Part shown: positions 105 through 13,436 of the stretch, one piece after another
How positions within the stretch are numbered: the first letter of the stretch is position 1
Layout of the letters: every line of letters begins with the position of its first letter
Notes under the pieces: model-generated
Told to the model about the DNA's origin: nothing
The model's input: the letters and a program-made list of their open reading frames with translations, nothing else
The model's database searches: none
Made by a program: the position numbers and the translations under genes
NCBI GenBank assembly: GCA_947593655.1
Contig: CANQDS010000013.1
Location: 1 to 39,878 of the forward strand
DNA length: 39,878 bases
Direction of reading: 5' to 3'
Origin: an uncultured Lachnospiraceae bacterium
GTDB taxonomy: Bacteria > Bacillota > Clostridia > Lachnospirales > Lachnospiraceae

Positions 105-321
105 GTGTACCACCCGACGCTGCGCCAACAGCGCCGGGCAAGGCATGGTAATACGACTACCACACGATACAGAATCTTCTGTGATACACACGAGATTATT
201 ATAATGGAATCAGCCGTTATTTACAACGGCGTTCGGATAATTTTGTGCCTGTATTTCAGATGTTATCTGCATACCTTCAGATAAAGCGGGGTGTTGGGTG
301 TGGACGCATACTTACACCCCG
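105..321. other. Non-coding stretch with a cluster of hairpins
   Basis: No convincing gene is visible in bases 1-426. Several inverted repeats follow each other. CCCG plus CGCTG (113-122) pairs with CAGCG plus CGGG (129-138) with one mismatch. TGGTA (146-150) pairs with TACCA (158-162), ACAGAA (169-174) with TTCTGT (177-182), GCCGTT (213-218) with AACGGC (225-230), CAGAT (257-261) with ATCTG (265-269), and CGGGGTGT (287-294) with ACACCCCG (314-321). This could be a long structured leader of the surface-protein gene or a separate small RNA. I do not recognise it as a known riboswitch; the conserved c-di-GMP, cobalamin and SAM core motifs were not seen. Confidence 0.35.
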
Positions 322-339
322 TTCTTGATTTCTCATAGG

Positions 340-380
340 GGATTTCGATTCGGCGGTTTTTACCGCCGGATTGGAAATCC
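340..380 (+). promoter_or_regulatory. Leader hairpin upstream of the surface-protein gene
   Basis: CGGCGGT (351-357) and ACCGCCG (362-368) pair perfectly across a TTTT loop. The flanks GGATTTC and GAAATCC extend the stem to about 18 pairs. No U-run follows, so it is not an intrinsic terminator. It ends 30 bases before the ribosome site AAAGGAGG (about 410-417) and may stabilise or regulate the message. Confidence 0.4.
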
Positions 381-426
381 TTCTGTGGGAAGCAGCGAAT
401 ATTTATTTGAAAAGGAGGAGTTTACA

Positions 427-3400
427 ATGAGAAAACGGACAGCACACGGAAAATGGAAAGCACGCCTGACGGCGGGATCACTCGCGCTGCTCTTAACGAT
501 CGGGGCAGTACCGGCCGTCCATACGATTGCGGCGGATGAGAAGGAAGCGGAAGCGAACGCAGGAAACGCGGTACAGACGGAGGAAACAGAACCGTCCGGA
601 GCGAATGCGGAACAGGAGGCGGCGGAGCCGTCAGCAGCTTCTTACGATATTACGCCTCCGGTCATTGAGGGTGTGGAGTTTCAGGAAAGCGGGCAGACAT
701 TCAGCGAGAGCACGGAACTTCATTTCACGATCGACGCGTATGATGCAGACGGTGAGATTGCCGGTTGGGAGTTGGCGTTTGAAAGATACAATGAGGAAAA
801 TGATTGCTGGGAAACAGAAACAACTTATGTGACTGGAACGCTGGAACAGGAAAATGAAACATACTTGTGTCCTGTTTTTTGGAATAAAGCAGGAACATTC
901 CGGCTTTCTGCTGTTCTGGCTTATGACAGCAGTAATAATCTGAGTGAAAATTATGCAGTAAAGGATGCTGTTTTTACGTTTGAACTTCAACAGGAAGTGA
1001 AAACGGCTTCAGTTACATTATCAGAAGAGAATTTTATTCTGGATGACCAGAATGCAGATGCGGAATTGGTAATTGAAGTGGATTTGGGATCAGAAATTGC
1101 AAAGTATGACTATGGGTATGGGAATCTTTTGTATGAGGTTCAATCTCCTTCGGAGGGTACAGTAGGATTTTCTATATCCTTAGAGTATGATCCGGAAACA
1201 CGGAAGTGGACAGGAACAAAGATGCTGGATGGTAATTTTGCTGCCGGAGATTGGAAATTGAGCTCATTAGAGCTTTATGCGGATAATGAACACATCCCGG
1301 TCGAACTTCCGGAATCCAGCTTCCGGCTGGATAAGAAGTTTACCGATCAGCAGGCGCCGGTTCTTGAGGATATTACCATCATTCATTCCGGGAAAAGCTG
1401 CATCGGCGGTACGGTAGAATCCGGAACGGTGGATTTTACGGTCACAGTGTCGGATGAGGGCGGAAGCGGACTGAAGCAAACCGGTTCTTATCTGGTTATT
1501 TATTCTCCATTAAATGGTCAGATACGAGAGTCGGCGCATTGGATCAATCTGACGTATGATAAGGAAAAAAACTGTTTTTACGGGAGCATTGATGCAGAAG
1601 AACTTTATCCATGTGAGTGGTATGTCGGATATGTTGGTATTTGTGATAAGGCGGGAAATGACTTATATTCACAAGGCACTATAGGAAGGTTCGAGGACTG
1701 GGGCGATCTGCAAAAAGATTATTATTTCTATGTACAAAAAGGAGGAACGTGCACACAGAAAATTTATAAAGATGTCACAGTCAATCTTTATGCCACAGAC
1801 GGCGAATTGTTGAAGACAGTTACAAAAGATGCAGCCAGAAGATCCACATTGAAGGATATTTTCGGAAAAGATTATCCGGTTATGGAAGAGGATCCAGAAT
1901 TAGGGGCGTTTTTGGAATGGACAGGCATGGTGCCTGGATATAAGGAAAAAAACTATCAGGAAGATACTCCGTTATTGGAATTAGATGACGGTGCGGTTAT
2001 GGAATTAACGGCCAACTATGAAAATATCATGATGGATGTAATGCTTACTTATATAGATGGGCAGAAAGAGGATCCTGCGGTTGCACAAAAAAGTATAACA
2101 GTAGTTGTACCGTATGGGACGACGTATGGGCAGCTTCTGGAGAAAATAAAGAAGGAAAACACGATACCGGATGCGGGCGGCTATCAATTTCAAGGATGGG
2201 AATATTATTATGAAACCGATCTGGATTCTGTGATCTCGCCGGATGCGATGGTATGGCTTTATGCCCAGTACCAGAAATATCCGATCGATGTTATGCTTTG
2301 GTATATTAATGATCAGGGAATCGTATCATTTACCCATGTAACGAAGGAATATCAGGATGGAATGAAAGTAAAAGACATTGTAAAAGACCTTAGTTCCTAT
2401 GAACCGGAGGATGCTTCGAAGCAGTTTCCGATTACAGGGTGGAGTCTGGATAATTTTTATCCATTAGATATGCCGGAAGAAGAGGTAGGGTTATTTATTT
2501 CATCGCTGACTTTGAAAGCGCTTTATCAGGATCAGTCGGTAGTAGCCTTATGGTATTCCTGGGTTTCAGAAAATAATATTGAATACTGGATTCGGGAATA
2601 TATAGCCTGCAGCAAAGAAGAGGAAAAATCCGAGGAAAAAATGCAGAAATATTTTCCGGAAGTATCTCATAACAAAGAGCTGGATTTTGATTCCTGGGAT
2701 GCGCATTATTATAAAAATGAAGAAGGGACGATCGAGGAAATTGATCTGTATCCGGTTTATAAGAAACCTTACATTATATTGGAATATCAAGGAAACGGGG
2801 AAAGAGAAGGCACTATCTGCACATTTGTATATGCGGTAGAGCCGGGACAGACATTTACTCTGCCTGAAACAGAATCCGGTTGGCAGTGTTTCAGTTCCAC
2901 TGACGGCAGCTTGGTATCGGTTGAAACCTATACGGTTCCGGCAGACGTAACAAGCGGATGGTTCGATATGATTTGGACAGACGATGGATACCTGGGTGAT
3001 CTGGGAGAGGATACGCCGTCCGAAGAGACGAAACCGGGAGAGGATACGCCGTCCGGAGAGACGAAGCCGGGAGAGGATACGCCGTCCGGAGAGACGAAGC
3101 CGGGAGAGGATACGCCGTCCGGAGAGACGAAGCCGGGGCAGGATGCACCGTCCGGAGAGACGAAACCAGAAGAAAAACCGGCGGTTACGATGGAGAAAAG
3201 CAAAGTAGAAAATGTGCTGGCTGATATCCAGAACGCGGAAAAACAGGCCGGAGAAAGCGGAGAAACCGTCAAAGTTACCGTGGATATGGTAAATTCCGAT
3301 AAAAGCACGGCTACTGTTGTTCCGGAGGAACTGCTTGCGGAAGTGAAGGGGAAAGACGTTGATCTGGTACTGGACATGGGCGCTTATACATGGACGATCA

Positions 3401-3879
3401 ACGGCAAGGATATTAAAGCGAAGGATTTAAAGGACATCAATCTGGAAGTGGCGCTGGATACAAAAGCAATCCCTTCCAAACTGGTTTCCGATCTTGCGGG
3501 CGGACAGGAAACGCGCCAGCTTTCCCTGACCTATGAAGGGGATTTTGGCTTTTCAGCGAGTTTAACGCTTCCGCTTGGAAAAGAATATCAGGGCAGCTAC
3601 GGTAATTTATATTATTATGACAGCACCGGAAAACTGGTATTCATGAATGCCGGAAAGATCGATGAAAACGGTAATGTCAGCCTTACGTTCTCGCACGCTT
3701 CGGATTATGTCATTGTGATCGGGGAGAAGGCGGAAACGGCTGCATCAACGTCGCCGGCAGCACCGGAGGAGTCGGCAAAGACAGGGGATATTTCCTGCAC
3801 ATTGCCGCTGATTGCGCTGTTCTTCGGATTCGGATTGGTTAAAGCGGCTTTTGCAAGAAGAAAATATTTTCGTTCTTAA
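427..3879 (+). CDS. Large secreted surface protein with Ig-like and B-repeat-like domains and a sortase-type C-terminus
   Basis: This is a predicted exported, cell-wall-anchored protein of 1150 residues, probably an adhesin or matrix-binding protein; its ligand is unknown. The start at 427 is chosen because AAAGGAGG lies 10 bases upstream and a basic, hydrophobic signal peptide follows (RKR..., LALLLTIGAVPAVHTIAA). The frame stays open upstream to a GTG at 298, which lacks these marks. In order there are Ig-like stretches beginning PPVIEGV and APVLEDI, then InlB B-repeat-like segments with the VMLTYI, GYQFQGW and LYAQY pattern. A short tandem linker (3004-3168) and a beta-rich module follow. 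The C-terminus is AKTGD, a hydrophobic segment and ARRK, a Lachnospiraceae-style relaxed LPXTG signal; the canonical LP is missing. The gene stands alone and is followed by two hairpins. Confidence 0.85.
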   Translation: MRKRTAHGKWKARLTAGSLALLLTIGAVPAVHTIAADEKEAEANAGNAVQTEETEPSGANAEQEAAEPSAASYDITPPVIEGVEFQESGQTFSESTELHFTIDAYDADGEIAGWELAFERYNEENDCWETETTYVTGTLEQENETYLCPVFWNKAGTFRLSAVLAYDSSNNLSENYAVKDAVFTFELQQEVKTASVTLSEENFILDDQNADAELVIEVDLGSEIAKYDYGYGNLLYEVQSPSEGTVGFSISLEYDPETRKWTGTKMLDGNFAAGDWKLSSLELYADNEHIPVELPESSFRLDKKFTDQQAPVLEDITIIHSGKSCIGGTVESGTVDFTVTVSDEGGSGLKQTGSYLVIYSPLNGQIRESAHWINLTYDKEKNCFYGSIDAEELYPCEWYVGYVGICDKAGNDLYSQGTIGRFEDWGDLQKDYYFYVQKGGTCTQKIYKDVTVNLYATDGELLKTVTKDAARRSTLKDIFGKDYPVMEEDPELGAFLEWTGMVPGYKEKNYQEDTPLLELDDGAVMELTANYENIMMDVMLTYIDGQKEDPAVAQKSITVVVPYGTTYGQLLEKIKKENTIPDAGGYQFQGWEYYYETDLDSVISPDAMVWLYAQYQKYPIDVMLWYINDQGIVSFTHVTKEYQDGMKVKDIVKDLSSYEPEDASKQFPITGWSLDNFYPLDMPEEEVGLFISSLTLKALYQDQSVVALWYSWVSENNIEYWIREYIACSKEEEKSEEKMQKYFPEVSHNKELDFDSWDAHYYKNEEGTIEEIDLYPVYKKPYIILEYQGNGEREGTICTFVYAVEPGQTFTLPETESGWQCFSSTDGSLVSVETYTVPADVTSGWFDMIWTDDGYLGDLGEDTPSEETKPGEDTPSGETKPGEDTPSGETKPGEDTPSGETKPGQDAPSGETKPEEKPAVTMEKSKVENVLADIQNAEKQAGESGETVKVTVDMVNSDKSTATVVPEELLAEVKGKDVDLVLDMGAYTWTINGKDIKAKDLKDINLEVALDTKAIPSKLVSDLAGGQETRQLSLTYEGDFGFSASLTLPLGKEYQGSYGNLYYYDSTGKLVFMNAGKIDENGNVSLTFSHASDYVIVIGEKAETAASTSPAAPEESAKTGDISCTLPLIALFFGFGLVKAAFARRKYFRS
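3004..3168 (+). repeat. Five tandem 33-bp repeats encoding a Pro/Glu/Thr linker
   Basis: Five in-frame 11-codon units of the form GEDTPSGETKP occur. The first carries an E for G change and the last reads GQDAPSGETKP. The middle three units are identical or nearly so at DNA level. The linker probably spans the cell wall, and its copy number is likely variable between strains. Confidence 0.9.
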
Positions 3880-8821: not shown

Positions 8822-10312
8822 ATGGGCGTAATGTATTCAAGTACCAGAAATCAAAAGGAGAAGCTGACGGCTTCTCAGGCAATTTTAAAGGGGCTGGCGG
8901 ACGACGGCGGCTTGTTTGTGCCGGATTCGATCCCGGCGCTGGATGTTTCCATCGATGCGCTTGCAAAGATGTCGTATCAGGAGACGGCTTATGAGGTCAT
9001 GAAGCTGTTTCTCTCTGATTTTACGGAGGCGGAATTAAAGGACTGCATCCGCCGTGCCTATGACAGCAAGTTTGATACGGAAGAGATCGCGCCGCTGGTA
9101 CAGGCGGACGGAGCCTATTATCTGGAATTATTCCACGGCGCTACGATCGCGTTTAAGGATATGGCGCTTTCCATTCTGCCTCATCTTCTGACGACGGCGG
9201 CGAAGAAAAACCAGGTAGAGAATGACATCGTTATCCTCACTGCGACTTCCGGCGATACGGGAAAAGCGGCGCTTGCCGGTTTCGCTGGGGTAGAAGGCAC
9301 GAAGATCATCGTTTTTTATCCGAAGAACGGCGTCAGCCCGATTCAGGAGAAGCAGATGGTTACGCAGAAGGGCAGCAATACGTTTGTGGTCGGCATTAAT
9401 GGGAATTTTGACGAAGCGCAGACCGGGGTTAAGCAGATGTTTTCCGATAAGGAGCTGGCGAAAGAGCTGGCACAGGCGGGCTATCAGTTTTCTTCCGCCA
9501 ATTCCATCAACATCGGCAGACTGGTTCCGCAGATCGTCTATTATGTCTATGCTTATGCGAAACTGTATGAAAACGGCGCAATCGGCAGGGATGAGAAGAT
9601 CAATGTCGTTGTTCCGACCGGGAATTTCGGAAATATTCTGGCCGCATTTTATGCAAAAAACATGGGACTTCCGATCGGGAAGCTGATCTGCGCCTCCAAC
9701 GAGAACAAGGTTTTATTTGATTTCTTCCGGACAGGCGCGTATGACAGAAACCGTGCGTTTATCCTGACCAGTTCCCCGTCGATGGATATTCTGATCTCCT
9801 CCAATCTGGAGCGGCTGATCTACTGGATTTCCGGAAATGACGCGGAAAAGAACGCACAGCTGATGAAAGCGCTTTCCGAAACCGGAAAATACGAGATCAC
9901 CGGAGAGATGCGGGCGCAGCTGGACGGTTTTTACGGAAATTATGCCGATGAGGCGGAAACGGCACAGGAGATCGCAAGGCTTTATGCGGACACGGGATAT
10001 GTGATCGATACGCATACGGCCGTGGCTTCCGGCGTTTACCGGAAGTACCGGAAGGAAACCGGCGACGAAGAGACGAAAACGGTGATTGCTTCCACCGCAA
10101 GCCCATTTAAATTTACGCGAAGCGTGTTAAACGCGATCGATCCGAAGTACGATTCCATGACTGATTTTGAACTGGCGGACGAACTGAGCCGGATCGGAAA
10201 TGTCGCGGTGCCGCGGGCTATCGAAGAGATCCGGAATGCCCCAGTGGTTCACGATACGGTCTGCGAAGCGGGGGAGATGCAGGCCACGGTGAAACGGTTT
10301 CTTGGAATATAA
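8822..10312 (+). CDS. thrC: Threonine synthase
   Basis: This PLP enzyme converts O-phospho-homoserine to threonine and phosphate in the cytoplasm, the last step of threonine synthesis. It has 496 residues and is of the longer class with its own N-terminal domain (MYSSTRN, then GLADDGGLFVP). The PLP lysine lies in GATIAFKDMA at about residue 112. The phosphate and cofactor-binding loop TATSGDTGKAAL and the VVPTGNFGN motif are intact. An in-frame ATG nine bases later is an alternative start; AGG at 8811-8813 fits the first better. The gene is alone behind its own promoter. No threonine leader peptide or T-box was seen in the upstream region. Confidence 0.95.
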   Translation: MGVMYSSTRNQKEKLTASQAILKGLADDGGLFVPDSIPALDVSIDALAKMSYQETAYEVMKLFLSDFTEAELKDCIRRAYDSKFDTEEIAPLVQADGAYYLELFHGATIAFKDMALSILPHLLTTAAKKNQVENDIVILTATSGDTGKAALAGFAGVEGTKIIVFYPKNGVSPIQEKQMVTQKGSNTFVVGINGNFDEAQTGVKQMFSDKELAKELAQAGYQFSSANSINIGRLVPQIVYYVYAYAKLYENGAIGRDEKINVVVPTGNFGNILAAFYAKNMGLPIGKLICASNENKVLFDFFRTGAYDRNRAFILTSSPSMDILISSNLERLIYWISGNDAEKNAQLMKALSETGKYEITGEMRAQLDGFYGNYADEAETAQEIARLYADTGYVIDTHTAVASGVYRKYRKETGDEETKTVIASTASPFKFTRSVLNAIDPKYDSMTDFELADELSRIGNVAVPRAIEEIRNAPVVHDTVCEAGEMQATVKRFLGI

Positions 10313-10464
10313 ATGTTTTTTACATATTTCTGAATAAAACTGTTTTTCCGAAAAAATTGTCAGATTTTTCCAGGATAAGTATTCAGAATAGTCTTAAACT
10401 TTCCGATATAAAAATATGAAAGTGTAGTTAGGCTGGTTTTTACTGGTTATGGGGGGAATGCAGA

Positions 10465-12011
10465 ATGGTTGTTTCACACAATATCAGCGCGATGAACGCG
10501 CAGAGACAGCTGGGCGGAACGGAAATGAAAAAGGGAAAAGACGCGGAGAAGCTCTCATCCGGCTATAAAGTTAATGGGGGGGAGACGACGCTGCAGGGTT
10601 AGCAATCTCTGAGAAGATGCGCAAACAGGTCAAGGGCCTGAACCGGGCTTCCACGAATGCACAGGACGGGATTTCTATGGTTCAGATCGCGGACGGCGCT
10701 ATGGCTGAGGTCAACGATATGTTAAACCGGTGCGTGGAACTGGCGGTACATGCTGCGAACGGAACGCTGTCTTCTTCGGACAGGCTGGCGATCCAGAATG
10801 AGGTCGACCAGATCAAGACGGAGATCGACGGGATCAGCGAGCGGACGAAATTCAATGAGATCAAGGTTTTGAAATCAGATGCGTCATCGTTTGAAGTTTA
10901 TAAGGCAGGCGATGATGTCGTGTATCATGGCGGACTGCCGAAGTGCGTTACAGTGCAGGAAATCGATAACGGAACTAATTATATGTCAAGCACCTGGAAA
11001 ACGACGGAAACGGTATTGTTGAATTATACGGATACTTCCGGAGTAGCAAAGACGACGGACTGGTCTGCTAAAGTTACTCATGCGGCAGCTTTTGTAGATT
11101 TCAGCAGATTTACGGGAACTCAGGATCAGATAGCGGATTTGATCGGAAAAGGCTTCTACTTTACTTGCTGTACCTGTGATAATCATTACAGCATCGAGTT
11201 TGCGGATTCCGATACAAACACAATGGAACGAAGCGGCAGTCATTATATTTATAAAGTCGGCGTGCGCGGAGCAAAGACGGCGGAGGATTTGATCAACCGG
11301 ATTCTGGATGCGACCAAAAATTCCTCAAACAAACCGGGAAATCCTCAGAATCATTATACGAAGCTGATGCAGGATCCCGATAATCCAAGTACATTGGTTA
11401 TTTACGATGACCGGAGACTTAGGAATACAGACTTTACAGATTGGCAGAGCTCGCTCCCGTCTGACGCTGATCCTTCGTCGGCGCAAGTAAGAGCACAAAA
11501 CTTAACCAATGCAAACTCCGTGGTAGGACCGGATCCGTGGTCAAGGCGGGGAATTATCGGACCGGGCGTTGCGCGGGCGAATCAGGTCTATGACCATACC
11601 GAATACGCAAATTTCCGCGATCAGGTTGCTTTGCAGATCGGAGCGGACACGGGAAATCAAATGATAATTAAACTTCCGGCTATTTCCGCAAAGATTTTGG
11701 GGATTGCAGATGTCAGCCTTATGACAGAAGATAAGGCGACGAATGCCATTGAAATTTTTAAAGACGCGGGAACCTATGTGAGCGCGGAACGCAGCCGCAT
11801 GGGCGCGTATCAGAACGGCCTGGAACACACGATCAAGAATCTGGATAATACTGTCGAAAATACGACGGCTGCGGAGTCGCGCATCCGGGATACGGATATG
11901 GCGGAGATGATCATGAAGTATTTAAAAGACAGTATTCTGTCGCAGTCCGGAGAGGCTATGCTGGCACAGGCCAATAGCAGTACGGAGAGCGTGCTTACTT
12001 TCCTGCGGTAG
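10465..12011 (+). pseudogene. Flagellin gene interrupted by a frameshift at a G7 run (possibly phase-variable, off state)
   Basis: Translation from ATG 10465 gives a flagellin N-terminus (VVSHNISAMNAQRQLGG, then EKLSSGYKVN). The frame shifts at seven G (10576-10582) and stops at 10602 after 45 codons. The next frame continues with DDAAGLAISEKMRKQVKG and stays open to 12011. It includes the conserved STNAQDGISMVQ region, a variable central part of about 230 residues, and the conserved end AESRIRDTDMAEM, then LAQANSSTESVLTFLR. Eight G would join both parts as NGGGDDAAGLA, giving a 515-residue flagellin. The usual residues at this site are NRAGDD or NRAADD, so the conserved Arg is already lost. 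The ribosome site is also a G run (G6, 10451-10456). Alternatives are a fixed pseudogene or a sequencing error. Confidence 0.85.
10576..10582 (+). repeat. G7 homopolymer at the flagellin frameshift
   Basis: Seven consecutive G follow AAT (Asn37) and precede AGACGACGCT. One more G restores the flagellin frame exactly. Runs of this kind are mutation hot spots through slipped-strand pairing and are used elsewhere as on/off switches of surface genes. Confidence 0.85.
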
Positions 12012-12101: not shown

Positions 12102-12147
12102 CTGCCGCTTCACGAATTTTCATTCAATGAAGCGGCAGCCTCTTTTT
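12102..12147. terminator. Bidirectional terminator between flagellin and cheX-like genes
   Basis: A perfect 11-bp stem, CTGCCGCTTCA (12102-12112) with TGAAGCGGCAG (12128-12138), is flanked by AAAAA on the left and CCTCTTTTT on the right. It fits both convergent transcripts. Confidence 0.85.
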
Positions 12148-12158
12148 GATAAAAACGT

Positions 12159-13055
12159 CTATTCACACGTTTTCACGACTTCATATAAAAAGTGTACGAT
12201 TCCGAAAGAATAGAGCATCGGGAAATGGTAAGTCCTGTGTTCAAATTCCACGATCGGATCGTCAATGGCTTCCGGGGCGGAAATCTTAAGCTCGAGGGAA
12301 GAATCGTTGGAAACATTCACAATGAAAAGGCCGTTGTGAAGATTCAGGAAATCTTCCATGGAAGCGCGTACATATTCATCATATTCGGTAAAGGTATCGC
12401 CGACATAACGCGAAGCAAATGCGATCGCCGTCTCTTCGTCCATATTGATATAAGATGCGATCTCGTACTCGCCGATCACGCGCTGGCGGATACAGCACTC
12501 CACCGGAAACGCATCGCATTCCTCGGAGGTAAGAGGAGTAAAGTCCTCGCCCACGAAACGGATGAAATTGTTGAACAAAAGCTCCAGATACATGTGGCCG
12601 TAGTGGGAGAGCGGCGTCTCGGACATAATAAAGAAGTTATCCAGCAGCTTCATGATATTATCATGGCTGTCCTGCGTCATATCCAGATCGATCAGCTCAT
12701 TCTGGGAACGATAATCCGCGATGATGTTTTCCAGATCAGAATTGGTAAGGATCCCCTCATCCACAAGAACCTGTCCCAGAAGCAGGAAATCCGGGCTCTG
12801 CGAGCGCAAAAGCTCCAGCACCTGATCATTGGTCAGGTAGCCCATATCGATGGCCAGCTCCCCGAACTTCTTATCTTCATGAGTCTGCTGGATGATCGTC
12901 TGGTCAACCTCGGATGCGGTCATATAGCCTGCGTGGATCGCAAGCGTGCCGAGCCTCATATGTTCATTCGACTGTTTCTGCATGGCAGAAAACAACTGCT
13001 CATTGGTAACATAACCTTTTGAGAGCAGATAATTCCCGAAAAATTGCGTATACAT
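12159..13055 (-). CDS. CheX-like chemotaxis protein with four N-terminal MshEN-like repeats
   Basis: This is a 298-residue cytoplasmic protein. Residues 1-115 contain four repeats of the xLGxxLxxxGxxTxxxLxxxxxxQ type. Their first glycines are at 7, 36, 65 and 94, exactly 29 residues apart, and the second at 14, 43, 72 and 101. This matches the MshEN motif of GspE/PilB N-domains, which in some proteins binds c-di-GMP. The repeat with RLG is at 34-36. The C-terminal part resembles CheX/CheC: D235-F-L-N238-L-H-N-G242 fits the (D/E)xxNxxxG phosphatase signature. CheX removes phosphate from CheY-P. It follows the receiver gene after three bases and shares its message, so the receiver is the likely partner. 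Ligand binding and activity are inferred. Confidence 0.8.
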   Translation of the reverse strand: MYTQFFGNYLLSKGYVTNEQLFSAMQKQSNEHMRLGTLAIHAGYMTASEVDQTIIQQTHEDKKFGELAIDMGYLTNDQVLELLRSQSPDFLLLGQVLVDEGILTNSDLENIIADYRSQNELIDLDMTQDSHDNIMKLLDNFFIMSETPLSHYGHMYLELLFNNFIRFVGEDFTPLTSEECDAFPVECCIRQRVIGEYEIASYINMDEETAIAFASRYVGDTFTEYDEYVRASMEDFLNLHNGLFIVNVSNDSSLELKISAPEAIDDPIVEFEHRTYHFPMLYSFGIVHFLYEVVKTCE

Positions 13056-13058
13056 AGT

Positions 13059-13436
13059 TTATCTCCTCTCTAGAAATGCCGTTACAACCTTGATTACCTG
13101 ATCTTTGTCAATTGGTTTCTGGATGAAATCCTTAGCGCCCGCCTCCAATGCACATTTCAGCTGGGACTGTGTGCCGACAGAAGATGCGATGATGATCTCT
13201 GCCTTCGGATCGTATGCCATGATCTCCTGAATTGCGATATTGCCGTCCTTCTCCGGCATAACGATGTCAAGAAATACAAGATCTGGTTTCTCTTCTTTAT
13301 ATTTATCAATTGCCGCCTGTCCATTGGAAGCCTCCACAAAAGTTGGCGTTCCCAGTGATGAAATGATGTCCTTCAGCTGTTTTCTAGCCAAAATGGAATC
13401 GTCACTGATTAAAATTTTTGCCTCGTCGATCTTCAT
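13059..13436 (-). CDS. CheY-like stand-alone response regulator receiver
   Basis: This is a 125-residue single receiver domain with no output domain. The acidic pocket is D12 and D13, the phospho-acceptor is D57 (FLDIVMP), the switch residue is S85 or S86 (IIASS), and the conserved lysine is K107 (IQKPI). All are intact, so it should be phosphorylated by a histidine kinase such as CheA, which is not in the window. AAGGAG precedes the ATG. It is the first gene of the operon with the CheX-like protein, whose ribosome site lies in its 3' end. Position opposite a flagellin gene suggests a role in motility, but it could also serve another signalling pathway. Confidence 0.93.
   Translation of the reverse strand: MKIDEAKILISDDSILARKQLKDIISSLGTPTFVEASNGQAAIDKYKEEKPDLVFLDIVMPEKDGNIAIQEIMAYDPKAEIIIASSVGTQSQLKCALEAGAKDFIQKPIDKDQVIKVVTAFLERR

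What the first reader, a model, noticed from the sequence alone, without database searches (positions are those of the whole stretch)
10465..12011. Flagellin gene switched off by one missing G in a G7 run: possible phase variation
The N-terminal 37 codons and the downstream 464 codons are both intact flagellin. They are out of frame only at seven G (10576-10582), and eight G would restore a 515-residue protein reading NGGGDDAAGLA. No other damage is visible over 1.5 kb, unlike an old pseudogene. The site lies in the conserved D0/D1 region where NRAGDD is expected, so a G run has replaced the usual codons. Slipped-strand switching at homopolymers is well known for surface genes in other bacteria; its use here is inference.
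Basis: partly seen in the sequence, partly recalled or inferred. Interest (0 to 1): 0.75.

Follow-up and report, generated by a model that had tools for sequence, protein, structure and literature searches.

The report
Flagellin gene broken at a G-run
In the assembled genome of an uncultured gut bacterium, a flagellum protein gene is cut in two at a run of seven Gs, and about a dozen genes of the same genome, many for surface structures, appear cut in the same way, which looks like a set of random on/off switches but still needs proof from raw reads.

Summary
In detail: the frame from ATG 10465 is lost at G7 (10576-10582), and the rest of an otherwise intact flagellin stays open to 12011. The window is a contig of a draft Lachnospiraceae genome (87% complete). 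The break is not isolated. The genome holds 72 G runs of 7 or more and has the highest G7/G6 ratio of 62 genomes of its genus (0.40; median 0.065). I count 12 genes interrupted at such runs, including a second flagellin, acyltransferases, a UbiA-type enzyme and a sensor kinase. Poly-A/T runs in the same loci are rarely at breaks. In the ten genes tested, all G7 breaks share one frame offset and all G8 breaks the other, which fits exchange between 7 and 8. So slipped-strand phase variation is a reasonable reading of the set. For this flagellin it is only plausible: the one close orthologue is intact without a G run, the run replaces a conserved motif, the sigma-28-like -35 box is altered, the run is short and MutL is present. 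A recent pseudogene is close behind; a miscounted run is not excluded. Raw reads were not available.

The parts
10382..10386 (+). -35 position of a sigma-28-like promoter; reads TTCAG where most genus flagellins read TTAAG or TAAAG
   Evidence: 24 of 46 flagellin upstream regions hold a CCGATA box; 21 of these 24 have TTAAG or TAAAG before it; the window gene is one of the 3 exceptions
10403..10410 (+). -10 box CCGATATA of the sigma-28-like promoter
10451..10456 (+). G6 run in the likely ribosome-binding region
   Evidence: role inferred from position
10465..10575 (+). first 37 codons of the flagellin; this frame then stops at 10600-10602
   Evidence: Flagellin_N 1-38
10576..10582 (+). G7 run at which the frame is lost
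10584..12011 (+). rest of the flagellin in another frame (the open frame begins at 10575), with Flagellin_N 37-135 and Flagellin_C 2-86 of 86
12102..12147 (+). terminator-like inverted repeat (12102-12112 and 12128-12138) followed by T5
   Evidence: read; not scanned with a tool
8822..10312 (+). upstream neighbour, threonine synthase
12159..13055 (-). downstream neighbour with a weak CheX match, below Pfam's cut-off
13059..13436 (-). response regulator receiver domain protein

Best explanation
The flagellin is OFF in the assembled cell type because a G7 run at codon 38 puts its two parts in different frames. Most likely it belongs to a genome-wide set of G7 and G8 runs that behave as simple-sequence contingency loci: slippage during replication adds or removes a G, moves a gene in or out of frame, and so varies which flagellins and surface structures single cells make. 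Shown: the run, the frame loss, the intact rest of the gene, the excess of such runs in this genome, and other genes interrupted at them. Inferred: that run length varies between cells, that the switch is reversible, and that the in-frame form makes a working flagellin.
For: No excess decay next to the intact orthologue; dN/dS 0.084 over 226 codons of the conserved ends. 72 G runs of 7 or more in the genome; exact G7/G6 ratio 0.40, next highest of 62 genomes 0.16, median 0.065. 12 genes read as interrupted at G runs, 7 of them with complementary or adjoining Pfam matches on the two sides, among them a second flagellin. Refined screen: 10 of 68 G runs at frame changes against 3 of 198 A/T runs (3 of the 10 I do not count as breaks). 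Uniform offset: 5 of 5 G7 genes one way, 5 of 5 G8 genes the other. At least 18 of 40 scanned proteins at G runs are envelope, glycan, secreted or chemoreceptor families by my reading.
Against: The only close orthologue is intact and has no run. None of 43 other flagellin frames has a G run of 6 or more, and none has GG at the motif (the pattern missed the C40 flagellin, L004 and L006). The run is followed by AGA, not TA as in 35 of the 72 runs. Altered -35 box. dN/dS of 0.35 in the first 37 codons, on 7.5 nonsynonymous differences. Seven is short: Campylobacter tracts peak at 9 and 10 (passages of PMC6321876). MutL is present. No background was computed for the surface-gene fraction. No reads.
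Confidence: 0.45

Rival explanations
1. Recent pseudogene: one of several redundant flagellins lost its frame in this lineage; the G run is only where the indel happened, and the gene will not come back at a useful rate.
For: Orthologue intact without a run; conserved motif replaced at the run; altered -35 box; higher dN/dS in the first 37 codons; six Flagellin_N matches in the genome, so loss is affordable; MutL present.
Against: No excess decay in the rest of the gene; the same kind of break in other genes of the genome, including a second flagellin.
Confidence: 0.35
2. The run length is wrong in the assembly and the gene is intact in the cell.
For: Draft assembly of 186 contigs; platform unknown. 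In draft Roseburia genomes frameshifts in flagellar genes were judged to be technical (passage of PMC3720852). The SDR gene is out of frame at the same G7 in two species, which a shared artefact could give.
Against: A/T runs in the same loci are rarely at breaks. G6 (139) is about nine times as common as G8 (15), so random miscounts should mostly turn G6 into G7; the offset of the five G7 genes tested, and of the window gene, is the opposite one.
Confidence: 0.13
3. Recoding: the out-of-frame run is the normal state, and ribosomal or transcriptional slippage on it makes some full-length protein.
For: The SDR gene keeps an out-of-frame G7 in two species at 82% DNA identity, and two acyltransferase paralogues at 88% do the same; the offset is uniform within each run length in the ten genes tested.
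Against: Two secreted proteins with homologous signal-peptide regions (81% over 115 bases) differ at the run: G7 in frame in L116, G8 out of frame in L123. The window flagellin run is not conserved. I did not search for a stimulatory structure.
Confidence: 0.06

Closest known systems
Poly-G contingency loci of Campylobacter (phasome; PMC6321876, passages read)
   Same: G runs of 7 or more inside coding sequence, in and out of frame in one genome; the PhasomeIt cut-off is 7 or more G or C; 5 to 81 phase-variable genes per strain there
   Different: Lachnospiraceae; most runs here are 7 (56 of 72), not 9 or 10; MutL present; frequent TA after the run; no length variation shown yet
Simple-sequence contingency genes of Neisseria meningitidis (PMC5084427, passages read)
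   Same: Tracts in coding sequence and near promoters; longer tracts more variable
   Different: Confirmed there by deep sequencing of colonies, not here; homopolymers of 8 or more were the ones predominantly variable there
Flagellar switch of Clostridioides difficile (PMC8890394, abstract start seen in the listing)
   Same: Phase variation of motility in a gut Clostridia member
   Different: Site-specific DNA inversion by RecV upstream of flgB, not a homopolymer
Localised frameshifts in flagellar genes, such as flhA of Campylobacter coli and fliP of Helicobacter pylori (seen only as reference titles in PMC2831843)
   Same: Motility switched by length change of a short homopolymer
   Different: Export or basal-body genes there; here the flagellin structural gene itself

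Membership tests
Simple-sequence contingency locus (phase variation) | Homopolymer tract long enough to slip (7 or more G or C in PhasomeIt) | tested here: met
   G7 at 10576-10582; cut-off from passages of PMC6321876. At the lower limit.
Simple-sequence contingency locus (phase variation) | Tract placed so that a length change switches the gene, with the gene otherwise intact | tested here: met
   Two parts in different frames at the run; no excess decay
Simple-sequence contingency locus (phase variation) | Tract length varies among cells or strains | not testable with these tools
   No reads and no second genome of the species; the close relative G074 has no tract here
Simple-sequence contingency locus (phase variation) | Reversible change of expression | not testable with these tools
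   Needs culture, reads or proteomics
Simple-sequence contingency locus (phase variation) | Supporting, not defining: other tracts in the genome sit in surface genes | tested here: inconclusive
   At least 18 of 40 scanned proteins by my reading of family names; no genomic background computed
Flagellin | N- and C-terminal helical regions present | tested here: met
   Flagellin_N 1-38 and 37-135 of 139 in the two parts, Flagellin_C 2-86 of 86

The most novel reading that the evidence does not exclude
Lachnospiraceae carry an undescribed, family-wide repertoire of poly-G contingency loci. The tracts sit in coding sequence, before promoter -10 boxes and in ribosome-binding regions, are often followed by TA, and randomly vary flagellins, surface glycans and secreted enzymes of dominant gut commensals; the window flagellin is a young member.
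Probability: 0.35. Interest if true: 0.8.

Novelty: new member of a known kind. Interest (0 to 1): 0.58.

Why it matters
Lachnospiraceae are major gut commensals, and their flagellins are prominent immune targets (general knowledge, not from a call). If their flagellins and surface structures switch by G-run slippage, consensus genomes hide on/off mixtures, and genes called pseudogenes may only be off for a time. Existing metagenome reads could test this at once.

Tried and rejected
General homopolymer error: tested with A/T runs of 7 or more in the same loci, which are rarely at breaks; not favoured. Old pseudogene: not supported by the conserved-column count. DNA inversion around the gene: one imperfect 24-base inverted pair was found, both arms inside the gene. 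Mobile copy: no plasmid match and no relative in viral contigs. Loss of mismatch repair as the driver: MutL_C is found in G000 and in 20 of 21 genomes searched, G000 included.

Rows dropped before the count of 12 interrupted genes: of the 18 mechanical frame changes I kept 11 and dropped 7. L042 was dropped because its upstream frame holds a complete TupA domain; L040, L100, L102, L124 and L125 as gene boundaries or ribosome-binding positions by my reading; L106 because its upstream frame runs on across the run to its own stop. One kept gene, L101, was called spanned and was read as interrupted. L065 was taken as intact because I recalled the closing motif of dUTPase in it.

One search used a wrong offset for the orthologue; its numbers are discarded and one search replaces it. 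The genus could not be named; Roseburia was a guess from the sizes of closed relatives and is not claimed.

Full report
WHERE IT IS. The window is contig C13 of a draft genome, G000: 3,088,598 bases, 186 contigs, 87.4% complete, 3.05% contamination. The only close orthologue found lies in G074 of the same genus. Its locus L032 is identical in sequence to L027, which is record CANQCX010000055.1, titled uncultured Lachnospiraceae bacterium isolate Lapin-002__bin74. I therefore take the organism to be a member of the Lachnospiraceae; the species is not known. The genome has six Flagellin_N matches, the window gene included, and FlhA. L006 is the weakest match and may be a hook-associated protein (recalled, not tested). 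Most window proteins that I scanned are core genes: threonine synthase, aconitase family, PEP carboxykinase, IF-2, PNPase, RimP, NusA, ScpA.

THE OBSERVATION. From ATG 10465 the frame gives 37 flagellin codons, then a shifted tail and a stop at 10600-10602. The frame open through the run gives 478 residues to the stop at 12009-12011. Pfam places the short product at Flagellin_N 1-38 and the long one at Flagellin_N 37-135 and Flagellin_C 2-86. The run is G7 at 10576-10582, the only G or C run of 7 or more in the window.

AGE OF THE BREAK. Against the orthologue, dN/dS is 0.177 over 509 codons, 0.084 over 226 codons of the conserved ends, and 0.35 in the first 37 codons on 7.5 nonsynonymous differences. 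Against 41 other flagellins the window gene departs from 20 of 95 conserved N-terminal columns and 18 of 65 C-terminal ones; the intact orthologue departs from 21 and 16. So the coding sequence shows no excess decay. Three things speak for relaxed constraint. The orthologue has no G run there. The two residues at the run are RA in 39, RS in 2 and HA in 2 of 43 other flagellin frames, and none of the 43 has a G run of 6 or more (the pattern missed the C40 flagellin, L004, which reads KA, and L006). Of 46 flagellin upstream regions 24 hold a CCGATA box, and 21 of those have TTAAG or TAAAG before it; the window gene has TTCAG.

THE GENOME-WIDE SET. G000 holds 72 distinct G runs of 7 or more: 56 G7, 15 G8, 1 G9. 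Exact G7 over exact G6 is 56/139 = 0.40. In the other 61 genomes of the genus search the pooled ratio is 695/9681; the next highest single value is 0.16 (G074, the closest relative found) and the median of all 62 is 0.065. A mechanical frame call over the 72 gives 40 spanned by one frame, 18 with a frame change and 14 without coding frames. I keep 11 of the 18 and add L101, so 12 interrupted genes; the dropped rows are in Tried and rejected. Seven have complementary or adjoining Pfam matches on the two sides: the window flagellin; the C40 flagellin (Flagellin_N 1-138 of 139 before the run, Flagellin_C 2-86 of 86 after it); UbiA L045 (24-89 and 93-231 of 250); Acyl_transf_3 L113 (2-23 and 36-323 of 326) and L135 (1-106 and 125-318 of 326); adh_short L130 (1-45 and 50-193 of 195); FIST L142 (4-127 and 133-189 of 189). 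Five rest on one side or on a paralogue: L043 (Acyl_transf_3 2-196 of 326 upstream, nothing downstream), L101 (CDP-OH_P_transf 6-119 of 152 upstream, nothing downstream), L119 (not scanned; 88% identical in DNA to L135), L122 (dCache from 139 of 240 and histidine kinase downstream, nothing upstream) and L123 (GH53 downstream; a 62-aa upstream frame that reads like a signal peptide). In the refined screen 10 of 68 G runs and 3 of 198 A/T runs show a frame change (Fisher p = 1e-4). That screen asks for long upstream parts, so it misses the window gene; 3 of its 10 (L042, L100, L102) are not breaks by my reading, and I did not follow up the 3 A/T cases, which are short frames. The looser flags 24 of 238 A/T runs.

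REAL OR ARTEFACT. In the ten interrupted genes tested, all 5 G7 cases share one frame offset between the parts and all 5 G8 cases share the other; L123 was not in that test. The window gene (10465 and 10575) falls with the G7 group. This fits exchange between lengths 7 and 8. Random miscounts should mostly act on G6 (139), about nine times as common as G8 (15), and give the other offset in G7 genes. I did not model the effect of stop codons on which offsets can be seen. Genus relatives: in 40 stretches chosen for a G-run-TA match, 45 G runs of 7 or more have lengths 7 to 13, with 16 spanned, 11 mechanical frame changes and 18 without call. For ten of the 11 I took coordinates and offsets: 5 of 5 G7 cases have the same offset as in G000; of 2 G8 cases one agrees and one (L157) does not. 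Of the five pairs scanned or half-scanned with Pfam plus two single sides, only the SDR orthologue L179 shows complementary matches; L154, L157 and L171 match secreted or binding domains on the downstream side, L166 a hexapeptide transferase upstream, L155 nothing. L179 keeps the same out-of-frame G7 as L130 at 82% DNA identity, which can mean switching, recoding or a shared artefact.

WHAT THE GENES ARE. I scanned 40 proteins spanning or adjoining G runs. By my reading of family names at least 18 of 40 are envelope, glycan, secreted or chemoreceptor proteins: Polysacc_synt_3, Acyl_transf_3, Sulfatase, two FkbM, GH16, CBM_4_9, LRR_5, two solute-binding proteins, MCP, Core-2/I-branching enzyme, two Hexapep, LicD, two pullulanase-like and DUF5013. 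Sixteen match other families, among them citrate lyase ligase, HipA, LuxC and an OPT transporter, and 6 match none. I computed no genomic background. Three noncoding runs stand directly before TATAAT (L056, L104, L129).

THE TA FLANK. Long G runs are followed by TA more often than preceded by AT: 35 against 7 in G000. In the fetched loci the bias is reversed for short runs (G3 152 against 312, G4 16 against 54, G5 7 against 14) and appears at G7 (24 against 8) and G8 (14 against 0). In 397 genomes sampled from the family, G8TA occurs 805 times against 222 for ATG8, and 679 against 178 without G000 and the outlier G223. In the 118 other genomes of the phylum sample it is 163 against 151. In the other 61 genomes of the genus, G7TA is 141 against 99. 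I have no mechanism for it. The window flagellin run is followed by AGA and is not of this type.

LITERATURE. Eight searches of the held open-access library listed no paper that by title or abstract start describes G-run phase variation in Lachnospiraceae. Searches listed only 15 of 69, 20 of 443 and 15 of 50 papers; (slipped-strand mispairing with Roseburia) found none; the one paper (PMC6437147) is, by its abstract start, on AB5 toxins and Campylobacter, and I did not read it. I read passages of PMC6321876, PMC5084427, PMC2831843 and PMC3720852. PMC3720852 corrected frameshifts in flagellar genes of Roseburia drafts and judged them technical, a warning for the present case. Preprints and most subscription papers were not searched.

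VERDICT. Switching is a reasonable reading of the genome's G-run set and plausible but unproven for this flagellin, with a recent pseudogene close behind and a miscounted run still open. It would be a new member of a known kind. Its interest lies mainly in the breadth of the set in this genome and in the unexplained TA flank across the family.

Noticed in passing
L103 (G000 contig C40), run at locus position 1501: A second flagellin of the genome is interrupted at a G7 run in its middle region, with Flagellin_N before and Flagellin_C after the run in another frame.
   Followed up: yes
family sample of 397 genomes: G runs of 8 or more are followed by TA far more often than preceded by AT in this family (805 against 222) but not in the phylum sample (163 against 151). 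No mechanism is known to me.
   Followed up: partly
G223: A 1.6 Mb, 68% complete genome of the same family has 115 G8TA matches against 44 for the mirror pattern, far more than any other genome of the sample.
   Followed up: no
L129, L104, L056 in G000; L182 in closed genome G042: G runs directly before TATAAT or TACAAT (G8, G7, G8 and G13); at L129 a TTGACA stands upstream, so the run may set promoter spacing.
   Followed up: no
L130 in G000 and L179 in G074: The same short-chain dehydrogenase gene is out of frame at the same G7 in two species at 82% DNA identity.
   Followed up: partly
window 298-3879: A 1193-residue open frame starting with GTG has no Pfam match at E 0.01.
   Followed up: no
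L040 (G000 contig C1), locus position 1501, minus strand: A G7 run stands just before the start of a protein that looks like FlgK (recalled, not tested), on the same contig as two flagellin-family genes.
   Followed up: no
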